Source: Gymnopus androsaceus JB14
Taxonomy: Eukaryota; Basidiomycota; Agaricomycetes; Agaricales; Omphalotaceae
Assembly (NCBI GenBank): GCA_009733575.1
Contig: ML769734.1
Coordinates: 1 to 64,000, forward strand
Length of the DNA: 64,000 bases
Direction of reading: 5' to 3'
Below are positions 12,210 to 29,760 of this stretch, piece by piece (the first letter of the stretch is position 1; each line of letters opens with the position of its first letter). The notes under the pieces were generated by a model. It was not told the DNA's origin and did no database searches. It was given only the letters and a program-made list of their open reading frames with translations. The position numbers and the translations under genes were made by a program.

Positions 12210-14016
12210 ATGAATCCTAATCAGTAAGTAGAAGCACACATATTCTACAAACTCTGCCAACACTTTTACTTTCAGGCCCATTCAATTTCACGCATCCAAC
12301 CGCCGTCCAAACTTCCCTTTACGCCCTCGGTTCTTTCGCCCGTTTCGACCCTTCAGGTAGATTCGTCGGCGTAGGCAGATTCGATGGTCTGGCAACAATC
12401 TGGGACTTGGACACAAAAGCCGCCATACGCTTCCTAGACGGCCATGTCAAAGGTGTGACTAGCTTGGAGTACGTATAATTCGGTATCCTCGTGAGTATCA
12501 CTTTCTCAAAATCCTTTCAGTTGGTCAAGACATTCTCGTTATGTGCTCACTTCCTCAAAAGATTGGAATGTCATTGTTTGGGATCTTTCCGAAGTTTGTG
12601 ACCCTCCTCAGCGATATGCAACAATTCGGTTTGATGCACCGGTTTCTTCAGCTTCGTTTCATCCGCGGAACAGGTGGGTATGGTCTTTCTCAACATTAGA
12701 GACCATGTTCATGCTTTTTTAGTCAAATAATTCTATCTCTTCTAAACACTGGCGAAGTCTATCTCACCGACTTGCGAAAGAACCATCGATCACGGACGGA
12801 ATTGTACGAACCAGATGGTGACGAGGATGGCAATGACGACGCGGGCCAATCAAATAAAAGGTATGCATTACCTGTAAATACACGCGCGCCTCTCATTCTT
12901 ATCCAAGATACGCAATGTCCGTCGCGCGTTTCGATCCCTCCGGTAAATACGTCTTTGTCGGCACATCTGGTGGATACATATTAGTTTTCCATACCAGGAC
13001 AAAAACAGTGCGTTCTACATCCTCTCCCTACACACACCCTGTCTCATTAGAATTCAACAGCTGGTAGCGCGACACAGAATAGCTGGTGGTGCTGGAACGA
13101 TCAAAGGATTGGATTTCGCAAAGAATGGCCGGCGCCTCGTAACCAACTCATCCGACCGAACCCTCCGCCAATTCATAGTCCCACCTTATCCTCCACCCAA
13201 CGACAACAACCCCAACGACTTTCTCGACCAAGAACTCGAGCCCACACATCGGTTCAACGACCCGATTAACAAGACTGCTTGGCATGCTGTTTCGTATAGT
13301 CCAGATGGGGAATGGCTTGCTGGTGGTGAGTTGCTAGCATAGTCCGCGGGTTTAGTGATGCTCGGCTCATGCACCACTCCTTTAAAGGCGCTGCTGATGC
13401 GGCTGCACATAAAATATACATCTGGGATATCTCAAACGACGGGCAGTTTGCTAGCACGTTGGATGGAGGAAGAGAGCCGTTGGCGCATTTACATGTTAGT
13501 TCCGGTTTTTTTAGTCTATTCTATTCTACGTATATCTCTGATTCACATTCTAGTGGCATCCATCAAAAGCATCAATAGCATCTACTACTAACCAAGGCAA
13601 CATCCTCATTTGGCATAGTCCGAATGCTGAGAGATGGGGCGCGTTTGCGGGTGGGTTCGAGGAGGTTGATGAGAATGTGGAGTATGAGGAGCGGGAGGAC
13701 GAGTTTGATATTGTGAGTGTTTTATTCATTTTGTTTCGCACCAGCATTTTCTAACCTTTGCTGTTTGTAGGAAGATGAAGCTGAAATCCTACGACGTAAA
13801 AAAGAAGCGGAGCAAGAGGATGTGGATATTGATACTATCGAAGGGGGCGACGGGCCACCACCTTCCATGCGCGATGCGGTTATGGTGAATGGTAGTGGTG
13901 GTAATGGTAATGGTAATGGTGCTGGTGTTGGGATCGATGAAGATTGGGCAGACGAGGATGCGGATGATGATCTTGTGTTTTGGAAGACGAGGATTAGTAT
14001 GGATGATGATATGTGA
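12210..14016 (+). CDS. SWD1: COMPASS subunit Swd1 (RbBP5 homologue), WD40 protein
   Basis: Exons: 12210-12223, 12276-12468, 12521-12673, 12723-12860, 12908-13007, 13061-13325, 13388-13494, 13554-13712 and 13771-14016, about 457 residues. Recognisable WD40 stretches are FDPSGRFVGVGRFDGLATIW, WSRHSRYVLTSSKDWNVIVW, FDPSGKYVFVGTSGGYILVF, HRFNDPINKTAWHAVSYSPD and TTNQGNILIWHSPNAERW. The last is followed by EEVDENVEYEEREDEFDI, the acidic hinge typical of Swd1/RbBP5. It scaffolds Set1C/COMPASS, which methylates histone H3 lysine 4. Exons 2-9 join in perfect phase. The short first exon (MNPN) joins with a one-base phase discrepancy, so the start or one base there is wrong. The tail is Gly/Asn-rich then acidic and ends MDDDM. 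Confidence 0.85.
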
Positions 14017-14189: not shown

Positions 14190-17100
14190 TTAATTTACAG
14201 ATTGCGCCCCCGGGCGCGGATGTCTTGCACGATACTCGTTCCATATTGACCGTAAGACTGGATTATCCCATGGCAGCCCACCTCCTTGCTCCTGTCTTTG
14301 CATTGAGGTGCCATGGAGAGGATCATCTTGAAAAGCAAATTCTAAGGAATGTATGTACATCGTTAGGGAGAAGTTCATTTTTACCAAGGTTCAAGACAAG
14401 CTTACCGTCCAGTTCTTCTTCTTCATATCCATATTCTTCAAATAGTACGCGTTTATCCGAATAACCGTCGTTTCTCGGCTGCATCTGTTTCATGGGCTGT
14501 GGTATTACGCGCCCATTTAGACCGTGGTTCGTCTCCTGCATCATCTCTGGCCGCTCAAAAGTTGACTCTGAACTAGAGGAGACTGATGATCTCCGAATGC
14601 TACCAGTGATTGAAGATTCGGCTGATAGAGGCGGAGAAGGAACGACTGTGAGGTTGAAGCTGGTGGAAGAGCTCGAGATAGGACTTTGCGGGTGAGAACT
14701 GGAAAAGAAGTTGGACACCATATATGTACTGTAACTGGACAGGGGACAGGGGACTTACGGATAGTTCATCATGCGTCTTGAGCTCATCATGGACATGGAT
14801 GCTCCGCTCTTCACGGGTGCGTACCACGTTTTCGGAGGCCCGGGATCGAGATATACCGCACCTGGCACGCCACCCATAGTGTCGCGCTCGCGCTCAGTAC
14901 TATTTGAGCTGTCTACGTCTCGGCGATATGGAGATACGGCCTGTATACCCTGCGATCAAAGGTGTTTTTCTGAGAAAAAACTAGTTCACATTCGAAGGGA
15001 TGAATAACACCTACCGTATCCACATTCCCATTTGAGGGAGTGATATATTTGTCGTAGAGGCTGGAGGACTGAGGGGTAACGGGGGCAACAGGCACGCCCG
15101 AAACTAGAGGATTGAGGAGATTGGAAAAGGAAGGGCTTCTAGCGGAGGGAGTGGTGGTTGTAGGATTAGTCGAAGGACGTCGGATATGACTGGCCTGTGG
15201 ATTTAATCGATATCCCGAGCCCGGTGCAGAGCCACCATCATTGGGCGAAGCACTATCGCTAAAATAATACAACTGCGACTGCCCAGGCGTTGGTAAATGA
15301 GGACTGAGGTAACCTCCATCACTCGAGTACATGGTCTGGTTACCGCCCTGATTCGAGAATGGGTTGCCAGAAAGAGATGGTGGCGCGGACAATGGATCAG
15401 AGGAACTCATATTATACGACTGTTGCATCGAGTTCGGGTGGATGTTCATATTACGGCCTCCCTGAGGAGTGCCAGGCATCTGAAGGTGATAGGAGCTGCT
15501 TGGTGGAACGTCATGCATGCTGGAGCTAATATAATCGGGCGGATGAGCGCCTGGCACCATGGAGGGAAGGGTCGTTGGATAGTAGAGGTTGAAAGAGTCG
15601 GGTGCGGCGGGTGAAGACGCACGCCGAGTTAGAGGATCGAGAAGCCCGGAAGGAGATGCGCTTCTACCGGAGGGCGGAAAGAGAGTAGTAGTAGTAGAAT
15701 TACTCGAGGGACGTGCAGGAGCAAGGATACGACGTCTAGCCTGTAGGGACTGTTAGAAAGCAACGTATCAGTGGGAGATCGATACCGCTCACGTTGATCA
15801 TCCAATTCGACACTTGCCTCATGGAGAGACCGGTAGCACGGGAGAGCTGCTTCGCCTCATCCTCACTGGGATAAGGATGATCAGAGTGACGATGAAGCCA
15901 GGCCTTTAAAAAGTCAACGGTCTCCTGCGAAAGCTTCCTTTTACGCAAAGCTGGTCGATCTACCAGAGTAAACAGATCGGAGGGTCGAGATGTGGATGAT
16001 CCAGCGGGTGGAGGCTGAGAATACCGAGGGACACCAGCGGGATTCAAGTATGAATCATGGTATAAATCTGTCGATAGCCTTGCTCGATTCTGGTCCTCGT
16101 CTGCGCTTGGCGGCGGTGGAAGTCTATAGCTGCTGAGTGCAGACTGATTAACGGGAGCATCGGACCGCCGATGAGGAGAGGGATAGGGCGAATGCCTCAC
16201 ACCCAAATTGAGCAATGAAGCAGGCCGGAACTCCTTTGCTGGATGCCTCCCAGACTCGTCCTCGACTGTCGTGAAAATCGAAGGCAATCGGACCTTGTCG
16301 GATTCGCCAGAGCCCAAGAAATCCCGCTCTGGCCTTGATGCGGACCCCAACTGGGAGATAAAGTCTGAGGCAAAGCTCATTGGCCTTTTAGAGGGAACGC
16401 TGCTGTCTGAAGTTGCAGAGTTGGACATAAAGCGAGAATCGTAGCCGAGATTTGTGGGACTGCATTATGAAAAGAAAAAGTCAGAGATTAGCTTTTTGTG
16501 CAAGATTGGAAAGATGAGCGAACATCAGCAGCGGTGAAGCGTCGTCTAAAGGTGGGTATAAAGCCAACGAAGGGTCCGGTACAGCACTAATCAAATTTAA
16601 TTCACTATTCCAGTTATTCGATACATAAGCAGATACCTTGGCCTCGGGTCCGAGACAATTTGCTCATCCTCGCCACTGCCGCGGTGGCCAGCATGCCATT
16701 CCTTGGCAAAGAGTTCCTCCTGAGGACCCAGAGATTGCAGAGAGGTAGATTGCGTTTCGGTAGCAACCTTGGCGTGATCCGCACCGGTGTTGAAACCAGT
16801 GTGGAATTGATCTTCAGCTGTGAGTTTGTTCAGATGGGGAGGGGAAGTTTGACCGGAGGAAGAGTAAAATGGATGCGGTGTGTCTGCACCATAGCCGTTA
16901 GCGAGAGATGCGTCCAAACTTGGTGAAGCACTGATGAAAGGTTGTCCAGTATTGCAATTGAGAGAACATAAAACAGAACAAATACCTTCGCCTTGGGTCC
17001 CAAACAATCTGATCATCCTCTTCATGGCCTCTATGAGTCCTTGGAGATTTAGTCATTGGATTAGCCAAAGGCAGGCCAGGGGTAAGCCGAGCCCGAGATT

Positions 17101-18749
17101 CTGGTTGTATCTCAGAGATCATCGCAGCTCTGATAGCAAAAGGGAGTCCGTTGGGTGCTGCACCGTTCGAAGATGTGTCGCCGACGACCGTTTTGAACGC
17201 ATTGCTACCACAGTTTTCGGAAAGCAGTTGTGTGCTGAAATCGCTATTACAGCCAATATAATCATAGAGTGGGATGCGCGATAACGAACCTGGCCAACTC
17301 AGGTCCATTGAGCATTGGCGATGTTCCCTAAAGAATACTGATGAACACATTTTGGGACGGATGCATTGATTAAAAATGTCTTACCAACTCTCGCTCTGGA
17401 AAGTGCAAGAGGTTCTGTACATGTTTCAGGAGATGCAGTAATCTTTGTGCATCGGGTCTGTGTGTGATTTCTTCAGCCCAACATGAGTCCAACATTGCGC
17501 GGATCGACATGAAAACATCTTCCTTGGGAATAACAGTTGGGGGAAGAACAGGTCTAACCCCTTTCAAAACATCTATTGCAACGCTAATGTCGAGGTTGTG
17601 GTGAGAGAACGGCGGTCGGCCAGTCAAAATCTGGAAGATAGGTAAATGTGGGTTCTGATGAATCGCATAACTGGAGACGCTTACCTCAAACACAGTACAT
17701 CCGAATGCATAGATATCTCTGGAAGTCAGCCTTCCTTCGGTAGGCACTGGAGTGGGATTGATGAATTCCGGCGCTAGCCAGCGAAGAGAGCCTTGAACGG
17801 TGGCGGTATGCGTGAGGTTCATTGATTGTGTATCCAAAACTGAGAGCCCGAAATCAGCCACACAACAGCGACGATCATCCGAAATTAAGATGTTCGCCTG
17901 GTAGCAAGTTGATTAGTTAAAAGATGGGAATTATGATGATGAGTACTGACCCCTTTGATATCGCCATGCACGACAGGCGGATCGAGCTCATGCAAGTAAA
18001 AGAGGCCTTCAGCAATTTGGATAGTCTGAAAAAGCATAAGAAGAGTGAGGATGGATGGGTTGAGTAGGCTCACATGCTCCAACTTCGTGCTCAGGTCTAA
18101 AGAACTGTTTTTCGCATATGATATGATATTGCCGTTAGACATCCAGGGAGAGACAATGCAGAAGCTCGGTGAAAATAGTTCAATATTGATACCAAGGAAG
18201 GGAAGGATGTTTGGGTGATTGAGCTGTCTCCACAAAAGCACCTCTTTGCTCAATGCCTTTAACAACGTCTCTCTGTCTGATCCCTCCTGGAAGAATCGCA
18301 AGACCTTAATACAAACACGCTGTCTGTCCAAACGACCAATCCAGATGTCCTGAAATTCGTGCCAATGACTCGGAATTCAGCCAGCTTTTGAAAGGATAGT
18401 CTCGTACTTACTGCAAATCCTCCTCCCGTAATTGCGGTCTCGCTTTCCCGAACCAAGCCCGTTAGAAACATGGAAGAAGGCAGGACGCTGTGTACACGAT
18501 TCAAATGGCGAATCGACTTCAAGTATTTCCTCCTTCGAGTGTCCTTCCGGGTACGTATACGGTCAAGTTCCTTTCCAATGTTCAAATATACTGTCAGGAA
18601 TCATAGGGAAACCGAGATCATACCGTCTGTAAAACTTCTATCATAATAGATGCTTCATTCGGCGCGAACTGTTTTTCGTGGAAATCATCTGCTGCTGCAA
18701 GGGAGAGAATTTGGGGTGTAGTCAACATGTAAGGCTCTGCTGAGCGCAT
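14190..18749 (-). CDS. Protein kinase fused to a TALE homeodomain (15-exon model)
   Basis: Exons, 5' to 3': 18749-18624, 18570-18412, 18349-18074, 18025-17951, 17897-17685, 17630-17385, 17327-17290, 17243-16986, 16930-16637, 16586-16524, 16459-15793, 15740-15015, 14940-14759, 14698-14406, 14341-14190. All junctions are GT-AG and in phase, giving 1255 residues. The kinase (about 88-360) has the glycine loop ITGGGFADIWIG, the lysine in CIKV, HGDIKGANIL, VADFGLS and LAPEF, and looks TKL-like. A Ser/Pro-rich linker follows. The homeodomain (about 750-812) has the TALE insertion RHSDHPYPSEDE and helix 3 VSNWMINARRR, with Trp48, Asn51 and Arg53 present. The tail is long and low in complexity. Retaining the intron at 17328-17384 would end the protein after the kinase (stop in the intron), so a kinase-only product and a separate homeodomain transcript remain possible. 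The start may instead be the ATG at 18728. Confidence 0.7.
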
Positions 18750-19231: not shown

Positions 19232-19400
19232 GATGATGATCTTGTATTTTCGAAGACGAGGATAATCATGGATGACGATGCTGAGTTAGGACTGGGAGGA
19301 AGTATACTGGAGTTTGGTCGCGAAGGAGGTATAAAGAGATCTGATGCAAATATTATGTACTGTAGCATACTATTAGAATCGTAATAATACTCGAGCTCGT
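19232..19400 (+). pseudogene. Truncated duplicate of the SWD1 3' end
   Basis: GATGATGATCTTGT.TTT.G and AAGACGAGGAT, followed by ATGGATGA.GAT, match SWD1 at 13966-14012. The following UTR-like DNA (GAGATCTG, TAATA.TA) also aligns with 14046-14095. It begins exactly where the NCS6 fragment ends. From 19401 to 19766 I see only diverged spacer. Confidence 0.65.
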
Positions 19401-19766: not shown

Positions 19767-19870
19767 CAACCCGATGTCTTGCACGATAATCGTCCCATAT
19801 TAACCGCAAGACTGGATTATCCCATGGTAGCCCACCTCCAGGACTTTTCGGTCTTTGCATTGAAGTAGTG
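19767..19870 (-). pseudogene. Relic of the homeodomain gene's last exon in the duplicated copy
   Basis: GATGTCTTGCACGATA.TCG, AAGACTGGATTATCCCATGG and AGCCCACCTCC repeat 14220-14300 (the last exon of the kinase-homeodomain gene) with substitutions. The frame is not maintained. The homeodomain itself is missing between here and 20330. Confidence 0.7.
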
Positions 19871-20045
19871 GCCTCGATTTGATTGAAACCTCTAGAGCGA
19901 GGGGATGCTATATTTTGATAGGAAACTATGTACAAAAGATATCATGCTGTTAGCGAATTCATTTTTACTCAACTTTGGAGCTTACAGCCGGATTTCTTTT
20001 CTTCTAAGTGCATGGACTCCGGTAGGGCTGGGACGCTTTTTTCCC

Positions 20046-20335
20046 AATTTGGAGTGCTGCTTCCACCAAAAGCGTGTGTTAATTGTGTCTGACTCAGGCT
20101 AGGCGTAGTGCTTGGAGTTGAAGCCCCAAACGAAAACAGTCCTGTGGAGGGAACGATGGAGCCGGGATCAATAATTGAAGAGGACGTCGAGTTTAGCCTG
20201 TTGGGTGCTGCTTCCACCAAAAGCGTGCGTTGATCGTGTCTGACTAGGTGTAGTGCTTGAAGTCGAAGCCCCAAATGAAAACAGTCCTGGGGAGGAAACG
20301 ATGGAGCCAGGATCAATAATTGAAGGACGTGTAGG
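20046..20335. repeat. Two tandem units of about 148 bp in the tail of the duplicated kinase
   Basis: Both units contain GCTGCTTCCACCAAAAGCGT, GAAGCCCCAAA.GAAAACAG and GGATCAATAATTGAAG, at about 20058-20180 and 20207-20327. The distal unit is still in frame with the kinase copy; the proximal unit lies mostly beyond its stop codon. Confidence 0.65.
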
Positions 20336-22106
20336 AGCAAGGATACGGGGTTTAGCCTGTTGGATTCAGTAAGCAAGGCTTGAATGTATCAGTTAGATAT
20401 CAATACAACTCACGTTGTCCTCTTGGCTTCTAGTGCGAGCCCGGAGAGATTCAAACTTATCCCAGGGTACAAGAGGTTTCGGTGGTATCTCAGAGATCAT
20501 TGCAGCTCTGCTAGAAAATGAGAGACCACCGGATGCTCCGGATCCATCATTCATTTTGAGCGCATTGCTACCACAGTTTCCCAAAAGCTGCTGTGTGCTA
20601 GAAGCGACATTATGACCAAAGAAGGACTTCCTTATGTCGATGAATTAATTAAATTGAACACAGGTCATTAGAGTGCAGTGGGATGAGTGGTAACGAACCT
20701 GGCATTTGATCCCTAAGGAAGACTGGTAAACACATTTTGGTATAGATACATTGATTAAAATGCCTTACCGACTCTTGCTCTGGCAAGCGCAGGAGGTTCT
20801 GCGTATGTTTCATGAAATCTAGTATGCCTTGTGCATCAGGCCTGCGCATGATTTCTTCAGCCCAACATGAGTCCAACATCGTACGGAGAGACTTGAAAAC
20901 ATCTTCTTTGGGAACGACAGACTGGGGGAAGAACAGGTCTAACCCCTTTCAAAACATCTATCGCAACGCTGATGTCGAGGTTATGATGAGAGAACGGCGG
21001 TCGGCCAGTCAAAATCTAGCAGATAGATTATTTCGGGTTCTCGTTATGCGCACAGCCGAAGAAGCTTACCTCAAACACAGTGCACCCGAACGCATAGATG
21101 TCTCTCGACGTCAACCTTCCTGCATTAGGCAATGGAGTGGGATTGATGAATTCCGGCGCTAGCCAGCGAAGAGAGCCTTGAACGCTGGCAGTATGCGTTG
21201 GGTTCATTGATTGTGTATCCAAAACTGAGAGCCCGAAATCAGCCAAACAGCAGCGACGGTCATCCGAGATCAAGATGTTTGCCTAGTGTCAAGTTAATTA
21301 GTTAAAAGATGGGAGATACGATAGGGTACTGACCCCTTTGATATCACCATGCACGACAGGTGGATCAAGTTCATGCAAGTAAAAGAGGCCTTCAGCAATT
21401 TGAATAGTCTAAAAAGTATAAGAAGAGTTAGGATGGATGGGTTGACTAAGCTCACATGCTCCAACTTCGTGCTCAGATTTAAAGAACTGTTTTTGGCATA
21501 TGAGACGATATCTCCATTAGACATCCAGGGAGAGACAATGCAGAAGCTCGGTGAAAATAGTTCAGTGTTGATACCAAGGAAGGGAAGAACGTTTGCATGA
21601 TCGAGCTGTCTCCACAAAAGCACTTCTTTGCTCATTGTCTTTAACAACGTCTCTCTGTCTGATCCCTGCTGGAAGAATCGCAAGACCTTAATACAAACAC
21701 GCTGTTTGTCCAAACGCCCAATCCAGATGTCCTGAAATCGTGTCCGAAATCAGAGTTCACTAGCGGTTGAAAGGATAGTCTCGTACTTACTGCAAATCCT
21801 CCTACCCGCAACTGCGGTCTCGCTTTCGCGAATCAAGCCTGTTAAACACATGGAAGGAGGCAGGATTCCGTGAACGCGATTCAAATGGCGAATCGACTTC
21901 AAGTACTTCCTCCTTCGAATGTCCTTCTGGGTACGTATACGGTCAAGTTCCTATTCCATGTTCAATTATACTGTCAGGAGTAATGAAAACCAAGATCCTA
22001 CCGTCTGTAAGACTTCTATTATAACGGATGCTTCATTCGGTGCGAGCTGTTTTTCGTGGAAATCATCTGCTGCTGCAAGTGAGAGAATTTGTGATGTGGT
22101 CCACAT
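20168..22106 (-). pseudogene. Second copy of the kinase, homeodomain deleted
   Basis: It aligns exon by exon with the kinase at 17290-18749: CIKVLRFFQQGSDRETLL, VVHGDIKG-type catalytic loop, LADFGLSVLDTQSMNPTHTA, LRWLAPEFINPTPLP. After the linker block SRAAMISEIPP an exon ends RARTRSQEDN and splices onto AKPRILAPTRPS, the counterpart of ARRRILAPARPS that follows the homeodomain in copy 1. The homeodomain and about 1.9 kb are thus deleted, and the tail stops at 20168. Two extra bases relative to copy 1 break the frame: one in the glycine loop (about 21795, giving a stop) and one near 20921. Because one-base insertions also hit essential genes in this window, these two may be assembly errors and the copy might still encode a homeodomain-less kinase. 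Confidence 0.7.
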
Positions 22107-22422
22107 GTAAGGCTCTGCTGAGCGAATTGTTCCCAACAAACTCGGCTTTGCAGTGCTATCGGCCGGAAAGTTGTGCGCCCTTGAGTTTAGATCTCGTGTA
22201 ACTACCCGCACGCAACGTCATTGCCTGAAAAGACTATTTTTTACTAACAAGTATTTTTCAGCTTCCAGGGAGATAACATAGAGTCTCGCAGCCGCGAATT
22301 TTTAACGAAAGATTCAAAGACGAGCGCTGCAATTAAGCGCTATGCTTTAGGTTTAGGGTTTCCAATTTTGGAGACTGAATTGAACGCTTTGACTCACTAC
22401 TCCTTCTCTCCGACCATCCATC

Positions 22423-24267: not shown

Positions 24268-25822
24268 ATGGATCACTTCAGCGTGTTGCCCAACGAAATT
24301 CTTGATCTCTTCTCCACAGAGATTCAAGAGCGCGGAAGCTTATTTTCTCTGTCCCTCGTATCGAAAAATTGCTACGACCTGTTTAATCGCCGCCTATATG
24401 AATTCGTGTGCGCTGATCGTCAAATCCGTCCTGATCAAATCCGTACTTTTGCTTTGTCGCAAAGCGAAAGAATGCCATTGATTGGACCTCATCCTGCATC
24501 GTTTGTCAAAACACTGAAACTGAAGTTTATTCAGTACGAGGATATGGAGGGTGAGGAGCAGACACCAACTCGATTACAGGGTGACATTGAAGAGGATCTA
24601 TTCAGAACACAGATCATTCCTGCGCTGAAGAACATCGCCGAGCATTCTGGCTTGTATCGTTTAGAGCTCTTCTTCCCCAATGTCTCTCTTGATAAAGGCA
24701 TCAAAGACCAGAGTTCGATTGTGTTTGGTCACCTCAGAGAGATTATTATTGGATGTCCTATTCCGAACAAGAAAAGCTTGGATATCTTTGTGAGTTTTTA
24801 AGCTCTGCTCAGACATATTGTCAATTAATTTTTCGCCTGTATGTACAGGAGTCGATATGTCGTGGCTCTCCATCCTTGAATTACCTGGAACTGAACTGGT
24901 GGAGATTCAACTATATTCGTGAGTGGCAGTCTCGAAAAACATTATTTCTGGAACACCGAGAGCTCTTCTTTACATAGGTGATCCCAATGTCGTCGTGAGA
25001 CTTATGGGAAGCATTCCAAAAGTCTGCCCCAATCTCCGAGAGATCCAGCTGCTTCACCTTAACGATGTCATCTCAGAACAATCTCGCGAAAGCATTCAAC
25101 AGGTCTTTGATGACCCGAATTTCACCTTTCCCTTGCTACAAAAGTTACATTGCGCCCGCTTCATGAGCTGTAACACGTTCTTGGAACGTCACCTTGGAAT
25201 CGAAAACTTGAAATGCAATAATAGTAGTAAATCGGGGTTTATAGGTGCCCTTCCGAACCTCAGACTTTTCCATGGGTCGGTGACAGATTACCTCGCATTG
25301 TGCTCGAAATACCCGCCTCCTGTGGAATACCTCGAATTGGATTTTATATCCACGGTTCCGAGGCTCGGTGCACAAGAGGAGATGCGGTTGATCAATGGAT
25401 TGGCCAAGACAAGAACGCTTCGTAGGTTTGTCTTGAATGAATATCGGATAACTGGAATTTCCTTGGTACTCCTCAATGCCATCACCAACGCATGTCCAAA
25501 CTTAACTCACTTCACATCTAGACTTGGTAAAGAGGTGTCCGCAGAACCTGCAAGTCTATCATTTGGATGTGATTGTTTTGATGAGAGCTGACTTACCACA
25601 CAGGAATTGGTGTACTCAACCGTTCTTCACAATCTCGTTGACCTCGAGCACCTGGATCTAGATTTCAGACACTTATCCGAGCAAAAACCCGACCATTTCT
25701 ATACTTCGCACCTCCAAGGCTTTTCTGGTCATCATTCATTGAAAACAGTACATGTTTGGAACGGTTGGAAAGATTTATACTTCGTAAAAGAGAAAGGTGA
25801 AATGATACAGTTGGTTCCATGA
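24268..25822 (+). CDS. F-box protein with leucine-rich C-terminal part
   Basis: Exons 24268-24789, 24849-24918, 24978-25534 and 25604-25822 join in phase to 455 residues with no frame break. The N-terminus FSVLPNEILDLFSTEIQERG followed by LSLVSKNCYDLFNRRLYEFV is an F-box of the type common in mushrooms. The rest has irregular leucine-rich repeats (LPNLRLFHGSV, PPPVEYLELDF, ACPNLTHFTS, LVDLEHLDLDF). Such proteins usually recruit substrates to SCF ubiquitin ligases; the substrate is unknown. It follows NCS6 on the same strand after a 450-bp spacer with no other gene. From 25823 to 26350 I find no supported feature beyond an AT dinucleotide run at 26268-26283. Confidence 0.8.
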
Positions 25823-26639
25823 AATTTCGAGTTCACTGTACATTCGTGTATCTTATCCACCACTTAATAGCGAACTTTTTTTCTTTCTGAAAAGCAGGAT
25901 GTTCTCCCAGGCGTCCCAAATGGCCCTCCTACGACTGAGCCGTTGTTCTACAGTAGAACTATGTGCCCAACTATTAACGGCCAGTGTGCTTCTCTGTGCG
26001 TGTAGATTCATCTGGAACTCTGGTAAGCTTGACGTGTACTTTGAGTGGAGAATGGGTATTGATTTGGCTGGCTGGGTGAGATCTCGCAGAGATCAAAGTA
26101 CGAGTTCCAGCGAATACAAATTAAAGGAGCAGACGGCTCTCGTTTTGTTTGTGCGCCGGCGATGATTGCTGTTACTACGACACATGAGCCTAGTATCGTC
26201 GTCGAGCGCCACTCCTTGAGATCGCCTCTTCCTTTTTCCCCCAGGATCTCTACTCCCGAAGTGAGTCTATATATATATATATACCACAATTTCATTCAAT
26301 TCGGAGCTCGAACAGCACTCAATCGTCATGAATCCACTGTTACGGATGTTTCAATTTCCTTCCACAGCGCTGGACGCTCGTTTGGAGTGAACTTGTTGTA
26401 ATGAAAGAGCGGCGGGAAAGAAGCTAGAATTCGGGCGAAATTCGAGAGCCTCAAATTTTTCACGCCAGTTGGAATGATCGCCTAAAATCTGACAAGCCAA
26501 AACGTCCATCTTCACTTCAGGCTGCCCCAACTTATATCTTCTTAGTTAGACCAAAGTGTAACAATCCACTATCTAATATGAAGTAAATCCACAGGAAATC
26601 CAGGGCCCTGGATTCCAGGGGCCAGCCTGGAATCCATGG

Positions 26640-27370
26640 TGTGACAGATGTCACACTATATGGAATCCATGGTATGTGGAATCCATGGACTACAAAATAT
26701 TGTAGTCTATGGAGTCCATGGTCTGTGGAATCCACAGACTGCAAAATGTAGTTGTCTATGGAATCCATGGTCTGTGGAATCCATGGACAACTAAAAAATA
26801 TAGTCATGGAATCCATAGTCTATGGAATCCATGGTCTGCGAAATAATATGGTCTATGGAATCCATGGTCTGTGGAATCTATGGACTACAAAATAATATAG
26901 TCTATGGAATCCATGGTCTGTGGAATCCATGGACTACAAAATAATATAGTCTATGGAATCCATGGTCTGTGGAATCCATGGACTAAAAATAATATAGTCT
27001 ATGGAATCCATGGTCTATGGAATCCATGGTCTATGGAATCCATGGTCTGTGGAATCCATGGACTCAAAAATATACTAGTCTATGGAATCCATGGTCTGTG
27101 GAATCCACACACTACAGAATGTAGTAGTCTATGGAAACCATGGTCTGTAGAATCCCAAAGTATAGTAGTCTATGGAATCCATGGTCTGTGGAATCCACAG
27201 ACTACAAAATGTAGTTGTCTATGGAATCCATGGTCTGTGGAATCCATGGACTACAAAATATAGTTGTCTATGGAATCCATGGTCTGTGGAATCCATGGAC
27301 TACACAATGAAGTAGCCACAGACTAATAAATACAGCATAGTGGTGTATTGATTCCACACACTATGAACTA
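26640..27370. repeat. Left minisatellite arm (GGAATCCATGG units)
   Basis: A unit of about 45-50 bases, TCTATGGAATCCATGG then TCTGTGGAATCCATGG then ACTACAAAAT and an AT-rich spacer, repeats about 15 times. TCCATGGA is itself palindromic, so each unit can form a hairpin. The inverse array is at 28330-29760. Confidence 0.85.
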
Positions 27371-27409
27371 TAGTAGTTCATGGAATCCATGTGTTACTAT
27401 AGTTTGTAG

Positions 27410-28200
27410 TGCAGGGGTTCAATTCAATCTGACAATGAAAATTGCTACTGGTTCCATGGGTCATTTATTACATCTTAAAAGATTCAATGCACCCAAAGAT
27501 TCCACTCATTTCAGACAGTTGAAAAGCTTCTAATCACCCAGAATGAATGTATTTAGGAGCAAGACTAGGTGATACCATTCAATCTGATGATAGAAATCAC
27601 TACTGATACCAGTATGGTGGTGGTACTTAGACAGGTCATTTCCTACACCCCAGAATATTCCATACTTATGAAATATTTCCAGTCATGTCAGATGGTTGAA
27701 AGGACTGTTCACTCAACATGCACATATTTTGGAGTAGAAATAAAGAGTACCATGCAATCTGACAATGAAAATCACTACTGACTCCAGTAAGTGGTGGTAC
27801 TTACATCGGTCATTTACTACATCCCAAAATATTCAATGCATCTGACAAATTTCTTGTCATTTCAGAGAGTTGAAACACCTCTACTCACTCAAGATGAATG
27901 AATTTGGGAGAAGGTGTAAGTAATACCATTCAATCCGATGGTAGAAATTACTACTGATTCTAGTATGGTGGTACTTACATGGGACCTTTCCTACACCTGA
28001 GAATATTCAATGCTTGTGAGATATTTCCAGTCATTTGAGATGGCTGAAAGGACTCTGCTCACTTGAGATGAACATATTTTTGAGTAAAATTAAATGGTAC
28101 CATTCAATCTGATGATGAAAATCACTACCGATTCCGGGACAGTGGTGGTACTTATATTAGTCATTTAATACACCCTAAAATACTCATTGCATCGTAAAAA
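27410..28200. repeat. Satellite of about 174 bp, nearly five copies, between the arms
   Basis: The phrase TACCATTCAATCTGATGAT or close variants occurs at about 27573, 27748, 27923 and 28097, with a diverged first copy at about 27414, so spacing is about 175 bp. Each copy also carries TGGTGGTACTTA, TACACC..A.AATATTC and TTTCCAGTCATTT-like phrases. Confidence 0.75.
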
Positions 28201-28329
28201 TTTAGAATAAGTACCTGCAGGTGCATATATACAATGGAACCAGTGAAGAAGCCCTAGATTGGGTTTTTCTCAGGTGCTTGGTTTCCTGAGTGGGACGGAG
28301 CAATAATATTCAGAAAGGGACAGAGAGCT

Positions 28330-29760
28330 CATTCATACACTACTACATGGATTCCATACACTACAATATTTTGTAGTCCATGGATTCCATAGACTATAAC
28401 ATTGAGTAGTTCATGGATTCCAAGACTATGATAATTTCTAGTCCATAGATTCCACACACTACTACATGGATTGCATAGAATACAACATTTTGTAGTCCAT
28501 GGATTCCACAGACCATGGATTCCATAGACAACTACATTCTGTAGTCTGTGGATTCCACAGACCATGGATTCCATAGACTACTGTACTCTTCCGACGAAGT
28601 GTTCACGGGGTGTGACAAGTGACCTACCCTGTTCAGAGTTCTAAGTGTTCACAGATCACAGTGACCTGTGACCAACCTGTGAACTGTTCACTGGGAGTGG
28701 ATTCTGGTGGATTATCTGTACTTATTTCACAATATGATCTTCATTTTACCTTATTTGAAACTATTTCTGGCTTGTTTATATGTAGACTGAGGAAATCTGA
28801 GTTTTTTAAAAGTATCTTTTGAACTATCTTGAGAATTTTATTTTGTTTTGGTTGTCACGGTGTTCACAACCCCAAGTGACCAGTGACACTCTTCTGTGAA
28901 CTGTTCATTTTGGGCTGATGTGACGCGTGACTGAACACTTGGTTGGAAGAGTACAGTACTATATTTTGTAGTCCATGGATTCTACAGACCAAGGATTCCA
29001 TAGACTACTACATTTTGTAGTGTGGATTTCACAGACCATGGATTCCATAGCCTACTATATTTTGTAGTCCATGGATTCCACAGACCATGGATTCCATAGC
29101 CTACTATATTTTGTAGTCCATGGATTCCACAGACCATGGATTCCATAGACTAGCATATTTCATAGTCCATGGATTCCACAGACCATGGATTCCATAGACT
29201 ATATTATTCTGTAGTCCATGGATTCCACAGACCATGGATTCCATAGACTAGTATATTTTTTAGTCCATGGATTCCACAGACCATGGATTCCATAGACTAT
29301 ATTATTTTGTAGTCCATGGATTCCACAGACCTTGGATTCCATAGACAACTACATTTTGTAGTCTGTGGATTCCACAGACCATGGATTCCATAGACTAGTA
29401 TATTTTTTAGTCCATGGATTCCACAGACCATGGATTCCATAGACTATATTATTTTGTAGTCCATGGATTCCACAGACCTTGGATTCCATAGACAACTACA
29501 TTTTGTAGTCCGTGGATTCCACAGACCATGGATTCCATAGACTATATTATTTTGTAGTCCATGGATTCCACAGACCATGGATTCCATAGACTATATTATT
29601 TTGTAGTCCATAGATTCCGCAGACCATGGATTCCGCAGACCATGGATTCCATAGACCATATTATTTCGTAGTCCATGGATTCCACAGACCATGGATTCCA
29701 TAGACTATATTTTTTAGTTGTCCATGGATTCCACAGACCATGGATTCCATATAGTGTGAC
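28330..29760. repeat. Right minisatellite arm, inverted relative to the left one
   Basis: CCATGGATTCCACAGACCATGGATTCCATAGACTA-like units (each part under 20 bases when split at CCATGG) repeat about 20 times. A 376-bp MITE interrupts the array at 28581-28956. Confidence 0.85.
28581..28956. mobile_element. TA-flanked MITE inside the minisatellite arm
   Basis: The ends are CTGTACTCTTCC and the exact complement GGAAGAGTACAG, with TA on both sides (28579-28580, 28957-28958). Removing it restores a normal minisatellite unit (TAGACTACTATATTTTG). Internally it repeats GTGTTCAC/GTGACC words. No coding capacity. Confidence 0.8.

What the first reader, a model, noticed from the sequence alone, without database searches (positions are those of the whole stretch)
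14190..18749. Protein kinase and TALE homeodomain in one 15-exon reading frame
Seen directly: fifteen exons linked by short GT-AG introns stay in phase from a complete kinase (glycine loop, catalytic Lys, HGD, DFG, APE) through a Ser/Pro linker to a complete TALE homeodomain and its tail, 1255 residues without a frame break. The exon just before the homeodomain's first convenient ATG (16428) is itself protein-like and has a good branch point, so that ATG need not be a start. A signalling enzyme fused to a DNA-binding homeodomain would couple a signal directly to transcription; I know of no described case. The alternative is two overlapping genes with an internal promoter.
Basis: partly seen in the sequence, partly recalled or inferred. 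Interest (0 to 1): 0.82.

Follow-up and report, generated by a model that had tools for sequence, protein, structure and literature searches.

The report
Mushroom kinase that captured a homeodomain
In a mushroom genome, a protein-kinase gene has picked up most of a DNA-binding homeodomain gene in its middle and still reads as one protein; sister genes in the same family carry other captured domains at about the same place.

Summary
The 15-exon frame is real: 18749..14190, minus strand, 1258 residues, 14 GT-AG introns. The genome is very probably Gymnopus androsaceus JB14. The only public model I saw for this gene is the homeodomain half (P0121, from ATG 16428). Comparison favours one gene. (1) The homeodomain segment (16540-15210) is a genomic copy of part of an intact solo homeodomain gene on C54; it lacks that gene's first exon and stop, and joins in the donor's frame. 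(2) Near its C-terminus the protein carries a tail found in kinases of this family and in none of the other 117 homeodomain-search proteins. (3) Splice sites after the kinase are shared with paralogues. (4) On C2 the same exon runs into a RhoGEF gene. Kinase-plus-homeodomain models exist in Rhodocollybia and Desarmillaria. So this is one member of a domain-capturing TKL kinase family, by analogy like plant kinase fusion proteins. Against: no RNA evidence; no tail in the six annotated kinases of this genome listed; fast change in the captured part; broken sister copies. Function is inferred.

The parts
14190..18749 (-). whole fused gene, 15 exons, 1258 residues
   Evidence: spliced translation without a stop, all introns GT-AG
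17415..18426 (-). TKL-type protein kinase domain, about residues 91-355 (exons 2-6)
   Evidence: Pfam; nearest solved kinases TNNI3K, CTR1, Roco4, RAF; dN/dS 0.04-0.26 in 18 comparisons with unbroken paralogue exons, a 19th (C92) gave no valid dS
16541..17327 (-). Ser/Pro-rich linker of the kinase family (exons 7-9 and start of exon 10), ending EDEQIVSDPRP-SAVPDPSLALYPPLDD
   Evidence: pieces match downstream of other kinase copies; shared splice sites at its start; the like exon runs into a RhoGEF gene on C2
15210..16540 (-). captured segment of the solo homeodomain gene on contig C54 (P0122), both ends sharp
   Evidence: DNA match to C54:130348-132028, 80-82%
16298..16387 (-). about 90-bp stretch inverted relative to the donor, frame still open
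   Evidence: opposite-strand match to C54:131758-131848, 89%; divergent stretch of equal length
15678..15918 (-). TALE homeodomain (residues 764-826), with intron 15741-15792; helix 3 NWMINARRR intact
   Evidence: Homeobox_KN 7.3e-19 in P0121; nearest solved Meis1/Meis2
15027..15179 (-). second, more diverged remnant of the same homeodomain gene (residues 993-1043)
   Evidence: BLASTP 52% over 54 columns, E 2e-8, to P0122 residues 375-427; tblastn to C54
14220..14285 (-). tail GGGLPWDNPVLRSIWNEYRARH (residues 1228-1249; nine residues follow)
   Evidence: tail HMM made without it hits P0121 at 1.7e-9; the like stretch of relative P0244 is a predicted helix, pLDDT about 90
19773..22138 (-). tandem, internally deleted second copy (kinase, linker piece, homeodomain remnant, tail); frameshift in kinase exon 6
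   Evidence: self-comparison; exon check

Best explanation
One chimaeric gene. A TKL-type kinase gene with a disordered middle and a C-terminal tail took in a genomic segment of the TALE homeodomain gene that normally sits next to cdc11, in frame, so the product is kinase - linker - homeodomain - tail. The like exon of a sister gene runs into a RhoGEF gene, and others are followed by zinc-finger or homeodomain pieces. Mechanism, inferred: the kinase is the conserved working part, the tail a regulatory or docking helix, and the captured domain sets what the kinase meets, here the DNA sites or partners of the homeodomain protein. The homeodomain is either an address that takes the kinase to promoters or a bait that reports interference with the solo homeodomain protein. 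Shown here: architecture in DNA, frame, donor, tail conservation, recurrence. Inferred: expression as one protein, kinase activity, DNA binding, role. My confidence is for the single-gene, domain-capture part; for the address-or-bait function it is about 0.35.
For: Frame and splicing. Donor C54 gene P0122 (548 aa): homology begins inside its second coding exon and ends four codons before its stop; first exon and upstream DNA are not in the match. Length differences in captured coding DNA are 3, 9, 15, 12 and 3 bases, all multiples of three (set aside are the equal-length inverted stretch and a large deletion with a 9-base gap beside it). No stop in 399 captured codons: neutral chance 0.19, 0.045, 0.0095 and 0.0045 at 0.05, 0.10, 0.15 and 0.20 changes per site. 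Tail profile: 23 of 353 fetched proteins, 22 kinases (11 of them gave the profile its sequences, 11 new) and P0121, new; 1 of 118 in the homeodomain-search set, P0121 itself. Splice signals of intron 6 and the exon 7 donor shared with 4 of 4 paralogues aligned. C2 runs into a RhoGEF gene in the like exon. The tandem copy repeats promoter, kinase, linker piece and tail. Kinase + homeodomain models in two other genera.
Against: No transcript data. P0121 is the homeodomain half alone; no fused model of this genome is among the 120 best listed (length 692-2201 aa) or (320-1018 aa). None of the six G. androsaceus kinase models listed hits the tail profile, and only 18 of the 115 kinases new do. Fused branch 81 changes, donor branch 5, 14 ambiguous, 281 same (the inverted stretch adds to the 81). 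dN/dS of the captured parts is 0.36-0.41 by NG86, but 0.52 and 0.69 by YN00 for two of the three parts (no value for the third), and 0.74 (NG86) for the 5' part with the inverted stretch left in. Linker dN/dS 0.72 between two paralogues. Three of eight paralogues are frameshifted in kinase exons, C92 is unclear. P0001's homeodomain stops in helix 3; P0001 and P0298 have no tail hit. The window lacks the stretch holding the paralogues' likely intron 7 acceptor, so that splice site is its own. A kinase-only isoform is possible.
Confidence: 0.72

Rival explanations
1. Two genes: a kinase ending near 17380 and a homeodomain gene starting at ATG 16428 with its own promoter in the linker.
For: P0121 (BT96DRAFT_890431, 665 aa) starts at that ATG; stop in intron 6 if it is retained; the ATG matches a Met of the donor; annotated kinases of this genome listed have no tail.
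Against: The match to the donor begins inside donor exon 2, so no donor promoter or first exon came along. Exon 10 continues the donor frame upstream of that ATG. The tail of P0121 is of the kinase family. The start of the linker is shared with kinase paralogues.
Confidence: 0.17
2. A mosaic left by recombination or transposon-style gene capture that is decaying and makes no functional protein.
For: Three of eight sister copies are frameshifted; cassettes are mosaics of fragments from several loci; fast change in the captured part; an inverted stretch.
Against: This copy has 1258 open codons; kinase dN/dS 0.04-0.26; length changes in the captured part are multiples of three; homeodomain contact residues are intact.
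Confidence: 0.15
3. Both forms are made: a kinase-only isoform by retention of intron 6 and a full-length fusion by splicing it out. This overlaps with the best explanation.
For: Retention gives a stop 4 codons after exon 6 in the window and 4 to 12 codons after it in 4 of 4 paralogues checked; kinase-only models of 333-450 aa are listed for Lentinula.
Against: No transcript evidence; intron 6 splice signals are conserved.
Confidence: 0.25

Closest known systems
Triticeae kinase fusion proteins (Sr43, Lr9, Pm4 and others; PMC10260397, passages read)
   Same: A kinase fused to an unrelated domain, a different domain in each gene; proposed there to be integrated decoys.
   Different: Plant genes with shown resistance function; no fixed C-terminal tail is mentioned in the passages read; here no function is known and no homology was tested.
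Expanded TKL kinases of Agaricomycetes (Laccaria bicolor, PMC2838846, passages read)
   Same: Same kinase group and fungal class.
   Different: The passages read count TKL kinases and name rare associated domains (such as Fungal_trans, once); they name no homeodomain, capture site or tail.
Solo TALE homeodomain gene next to cdc11 (P0122; named tos8 in some species)
   Same: Source of the captured segment, 82% DNA identity around the homeodomain.
   Different: 548 aa, ends APGSGYGTPQ, no kinase, no tail; its homeodomain hardly changes among the 20 solo proteins aligned.
Helitron gene capture in Pleurotus ostreatus (PMC4289320, passages read)
   Same: A fungal route by which genes can be carried and expressed.
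   Different: [quoted passage not shown] I did not look for Helitron ends here.
Kinase + homeodomain gene models P0001 (Rhodocollybia butyracea) and P0298 (Desarmillaria tabescens)
   Same: TKL-type kinase followed by a homeodomain of the same type in one predicted protein.
   Different: P0001's homeodomain stops in helix 3; neither hits the tail profile; either may be a merged gene model.

Membership tests
TKL-group protein kinase | Kinase fold with Gly loop, catalytic Lys, H-x-D, DFG, APE; nearest to TKL kinases | tested here: met
   (motifs); nearest TNNI3K, CTR1, Roco4, RAF; on relative P0244: RIPK2, CTR1
TKL-group protein kinase | Catalytic activity | not testable with these tools
   no assay
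TALE homeodomain (Homeobox_KN) | Homeobox_KN profile, three-residue loop extension, W48/N51/R53 (numbering recalled) | tested here: met
   7.3e-19; HPYP loop, NWMINARRR; nearest Meis1
TALE homeodomain (Homeobox_KN) | Binds DNA and regulates transcription | not testable with these tools
   no assay
kinase-plus-tail family of Marasmiineae described here | N-terminal kinase and C-terminal tail of the type W-[DN]-[DN]-x-x-L-x-x-A-W-x-x-Y-x-x-R | tested here: met
   the window has I for A in the tail
plant-type kinase fusion protein with integrated decoy | Kinase with intact motifs joined to an unrelated domain that varies between genes | tested here: met
   architecture in DNA or gene models only:
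plant-type kinase fusion protein with integrated decoy | Confers resistance or recognises an effector | not testable with these tools
   analogy only; not filed as a member
Helitron-borne captured gene | RepHel helicase or Helitron ends around the unit | not tested
   no search for them was made

The most novel reading that the evidence does not exclude
Mushrooms have a fungal counterpart of plant integrated-decoy receptors: a TKL kinase family with a C-terminal tail and a capture site in one linker exon that takes in host regulators (homeodomain more than once, RhoGEF, C2H2 and GATA fingers, CCCH/SAM, Zn-cluster; elsewhere bZIP, bromodomain, G-alpha, ARID) as baits for a self/non-self or defence response. 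The window's gene is a member whose homeodomain was renewed from the solo gene beside an older remnant.
Probability: 0.2. Interest if true: 0.92.

Novelty: new variant of a known kind. Interest (0 to 1): 0.74.

Why it matters
If the fusion is expressed, one protein holds a signalling kinase and a DNA-binding homeodomain, and sister genes hold other captured regulators. That would give fungi a system of swapping domains onto a kinase, comparable to integrated-decoy receptors of plants, and would show where such genes are made: a linker exon. Donor gene, capture borders and tail are defined here, so the idea can be tested with one cDNA experiment and a family-wide survey.

Tried and rejected
Two overlapping genes: weighed against donor borders and the tail, ranked second. 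A single ancient kinase-homeodomain fusion shared by all: not supported. The tree puts the window's homeodomain next to the same species' solo gene (88/100, not starred by the tool) and leaves the other four open; the bootstrap had not settled and those four rows are partial. Synonymous distances differ (C352-C54 0.43, C337-C54 0.83, C352-C337 1.02). Renewal of an old remnant by recombination with C54 was not separated from a new capture. Residues 983-1258 found, beyond the gene itself, tail matches and one weak, stop-bearing match on C64. Helitron ends were not searched. The fusion itself was not folded (1258 aa, above the size limit for one protein); relative P0244 was (mean pLDDT 57), so the tail helix is inferred for the window.

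Counts and what was left out. The regular expression gave 22 proteins; the HMM (23 at i-E under 0.05, three of them weaker than 0.002) is the count used. The 353 proteins are the listed best of three capped searches, not all hits. The tree used 18 solo proteins chosen, two (P0004, P0015) and five fused or presumed fused pieces; for C337 the contig starts in the linker, so its kinase is not seen, and for C92 a joint frame of kinase and homeodomain was not shown. In one search exons with breaks or odd length were dropped before dN/dS. The polarisation used five outgroup proteins. The stop simulation started from the window's own codons. In one search the script listed CAG acceptors only; the TAG acceptor that joins the C2 linker to SAVSDNALILAN was read by eye, with the open frame.
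Full report
What is there. The window is C352:1-64000 of an 83-Mb assembly. Protein P0121 is letter for letter the C-terminal 665 residues of the window's gene, lies on a contig of 66,736 bases like C352, and is BT96DRAFT_890431 of Gymnopus androsaceus JB14, so the genome is very probably that one. Pfam finds kinase and homeodomain. Nearest solved structures by sequence are TNNI3K, CTR1, Roco4 and RAF for the kinase and Meis proteins for the homeodomain.

Where the homeodomain came from. The kinase and pieces of the linker match kinase genes on C352 (tandem copy), C337, C130, C2, C118 and C92. The homeodomain part matches a gene on C54, annotated as P0122, 548 aa, downstream of leucine-rich-repeat-like frames (by eye). 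In Collybiopsis, Moniliophthora, Psilocybe, Termitomyces and Arthromyces, models join such repeats and this homeodomain, so C54 looks like the old resident place. The alignment with C54 starts abruptly at window 16540, inside a coding exon of the donor (ASPLL), runs through donor introns, and stops at 15210, four codons before the donor's stop. The donor's first exon, upstream DNA and stop are not in the match. The codon at 16540 is in the donor's frame. Against the donor there are a large deletion, a stretch of about 90 bp in opposite orientation, and length changes of 3, 9, 15, 12 and 3 bases. Residues 993-1043 are a second, more diverged remnant of the same gene (52% over 54 columns, E 2e-8).

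Why one gene. Near its end the protein has GGGLPWDNPVLRSIWNEYRARH, followed by nine residues. A profile built from thirteen such tails, the window's not among them, hit 23 of 353 fetched proteins: 22 kinases and P0121. Eleven of the 22 kinases had supplied the profile; eleven and P0121 were new. Of the 118 proteins numbered in the homeodomain search only P0121 was hit. The kinases come from Collybiopsis, Rhodocollybia, Lentinula, Marasmius, Moniliophthora and Tetrapyrgos, with kinase and tail in one annotated protein. The tail is not general: 18 of the 115 kinases new have it, and none of the six annotated kinases of this genome in that list, though tails lie in the DNA after several of its kinase copies. 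The splice signals of intron 6 and the exon 7 donor are shared with the four paralogues aligned (C2 has GTATAT at intron 6); the window lacks the stretch with their likely intron 7 acceptor. The tandem copy repeats promoter, kinase, linker piece, homeodomain remnant and tail. In relative P0244 the tail is a confident helix (pLDDT about 90) after about 285 residues of low confidence.

The family captures domains. In C130 and C337 the copies share a 5' module up to the exon end EDDQIVWDPRP or to about 120 bp beyond it, then differ, and several share a 3' part with the tail. On C2 the exon after the linker reads SAVSDNALILAN and stays open into DNA 94% identical to C107 over 4.5 kb, where DEP and RhoGEF domains lie in the same sense; its whole splicing was not worked out. 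In the window the like exon reads SAVPDPSLALYPPLDD and runs into the homeodomain gene. Downstream of the second C130 kinase lie C2H2 and GATA fingers (on pieces joined by guessed splices) and fragments of at least four other loci. On C337 a linker is followed by a homeodomain, CCCH and SAM domains, and another kinase by a Zn-cluster; C118 has a homeodomain fragment and C92 a homeodomain. None of these was shown to be one spliced gene. Outside this genome, at least 13 of 115 kinases scanned have a further non-kinase domain at E 1e-5 or better: 4 of 58 (PH twice, Cation_ATPase_N, PBD) and 9 of 57 (G-alpha, TPR, homeodomain, bromodomain, RRM, VHS, bZIP, SH3, GPIID_WHD; 25 of 29 families were shown). 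The 115 include the six kinases of this genome. Some may be merged neighbours. P0254, on a 3.6-kb contig and so perhaps a transcript, joins this kinase to a second kinase and a weak C1 match below Pfam's cut-off.

Selection. Kinase exons against unbroken paralogue exons have dN/dS 0.04 to 0.26 in 18 comparisons. Captured parts against the donor give 0.36 to 0.41 by NG86 over 111, 77 and 173 codons; YN00 gives 0.52 and 0.69 for two and no value for one; with the inverted stretch the 5' part gives 0.74. Nearly all amino-acid change is on the fused side: 81 against 5, 14 ambiguous. Neutral chance of no stop in 399 codons is 0.19 to 0.0045 for 0.05 to 0.20 changes per site. Of eight paralogues, four are unbroken in the three kinase exons checked, three are frameshifted, C92 is unclear. 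The window keeps NWMINARRR; C337 has D and C92 has H at position 51. So the kinase is held, the captured part drifts, and DNA binding need not be the point in every copy.

How it most likely works. The kinase catalyses; the tail probably docks or regulates; the captured part decides where the kinase goes or what it senses. For this copy two uses fit: an address to DNA or partners of the homeodomain protein, or a bait, as proposed for plant kinase fusion proteins (passages of PMC10260397). These are inferences. Kinase-only transcripts by retention of intron 6 are possible.

Known or new. The listings of ten paper searches (three returned nothing, one search listed 10 of 35) showed no paper on a kinase-homeodomain fusion or on domain capture by these kinases; the library holds open-licence papers only. 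From PMC2838846 (passages) the TKL expansion in Laccaria is known. I rate it a new variant of a known kind.

Noticed in passing
L029 (C54:125000-134999); P0004, P0015, P0016, P0030, P0031, P0157: In several Agaricales one gene model joins leucine-rich repeats (cdc11-type by name in P0015) with this homeodomain; in the window's genome the homeodomain gene P0122 is annotated alone. Either a merge error repeated across species or a real read-through.
   Followed up: no
window 13963-14010 and 19232-19279: The end of the convergent plus-strand neighbour (looks WD-repeat-like; SWD1-like is recalled, not tested) is repeated between the two kinase copies, marking the tandem duplication unit.
   Followed up: partly
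window 26628-27997: Dense internal direct repeats, 73-91% identical, in several registers.
   Followed up: no
C107:7593-9935 and 24502-29058, C689, C200, C229, C556: The RhoGEF gene joined to the kinase on C2 has a near-full match and several partial ones elsewhere in the genome.
   Followed up: no
C130:180700-183100: The stretch after the kinase is a mosaic with pieces 89-95% identical to C26, C94, C18 and C86, and weaker matches elsewhere.
   Followed up: partly
P0007, P0291, P0299, P0312, P0333: Kinases of Marasmius and Paramarasmius are named Homeobox protein tos8 though no Homeobox_KN domain is listed for them (P0291 and P0299 rescanned), as if the name spread from a fused protein.
   Followed up: partly
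window 20319-20417: The tandem copy's homeodomain remnant is closer to C337 (82%) than to C54 (76%) or to the neighbouring gene (75%), hinting at exchange between arrays.
   Followed up: no
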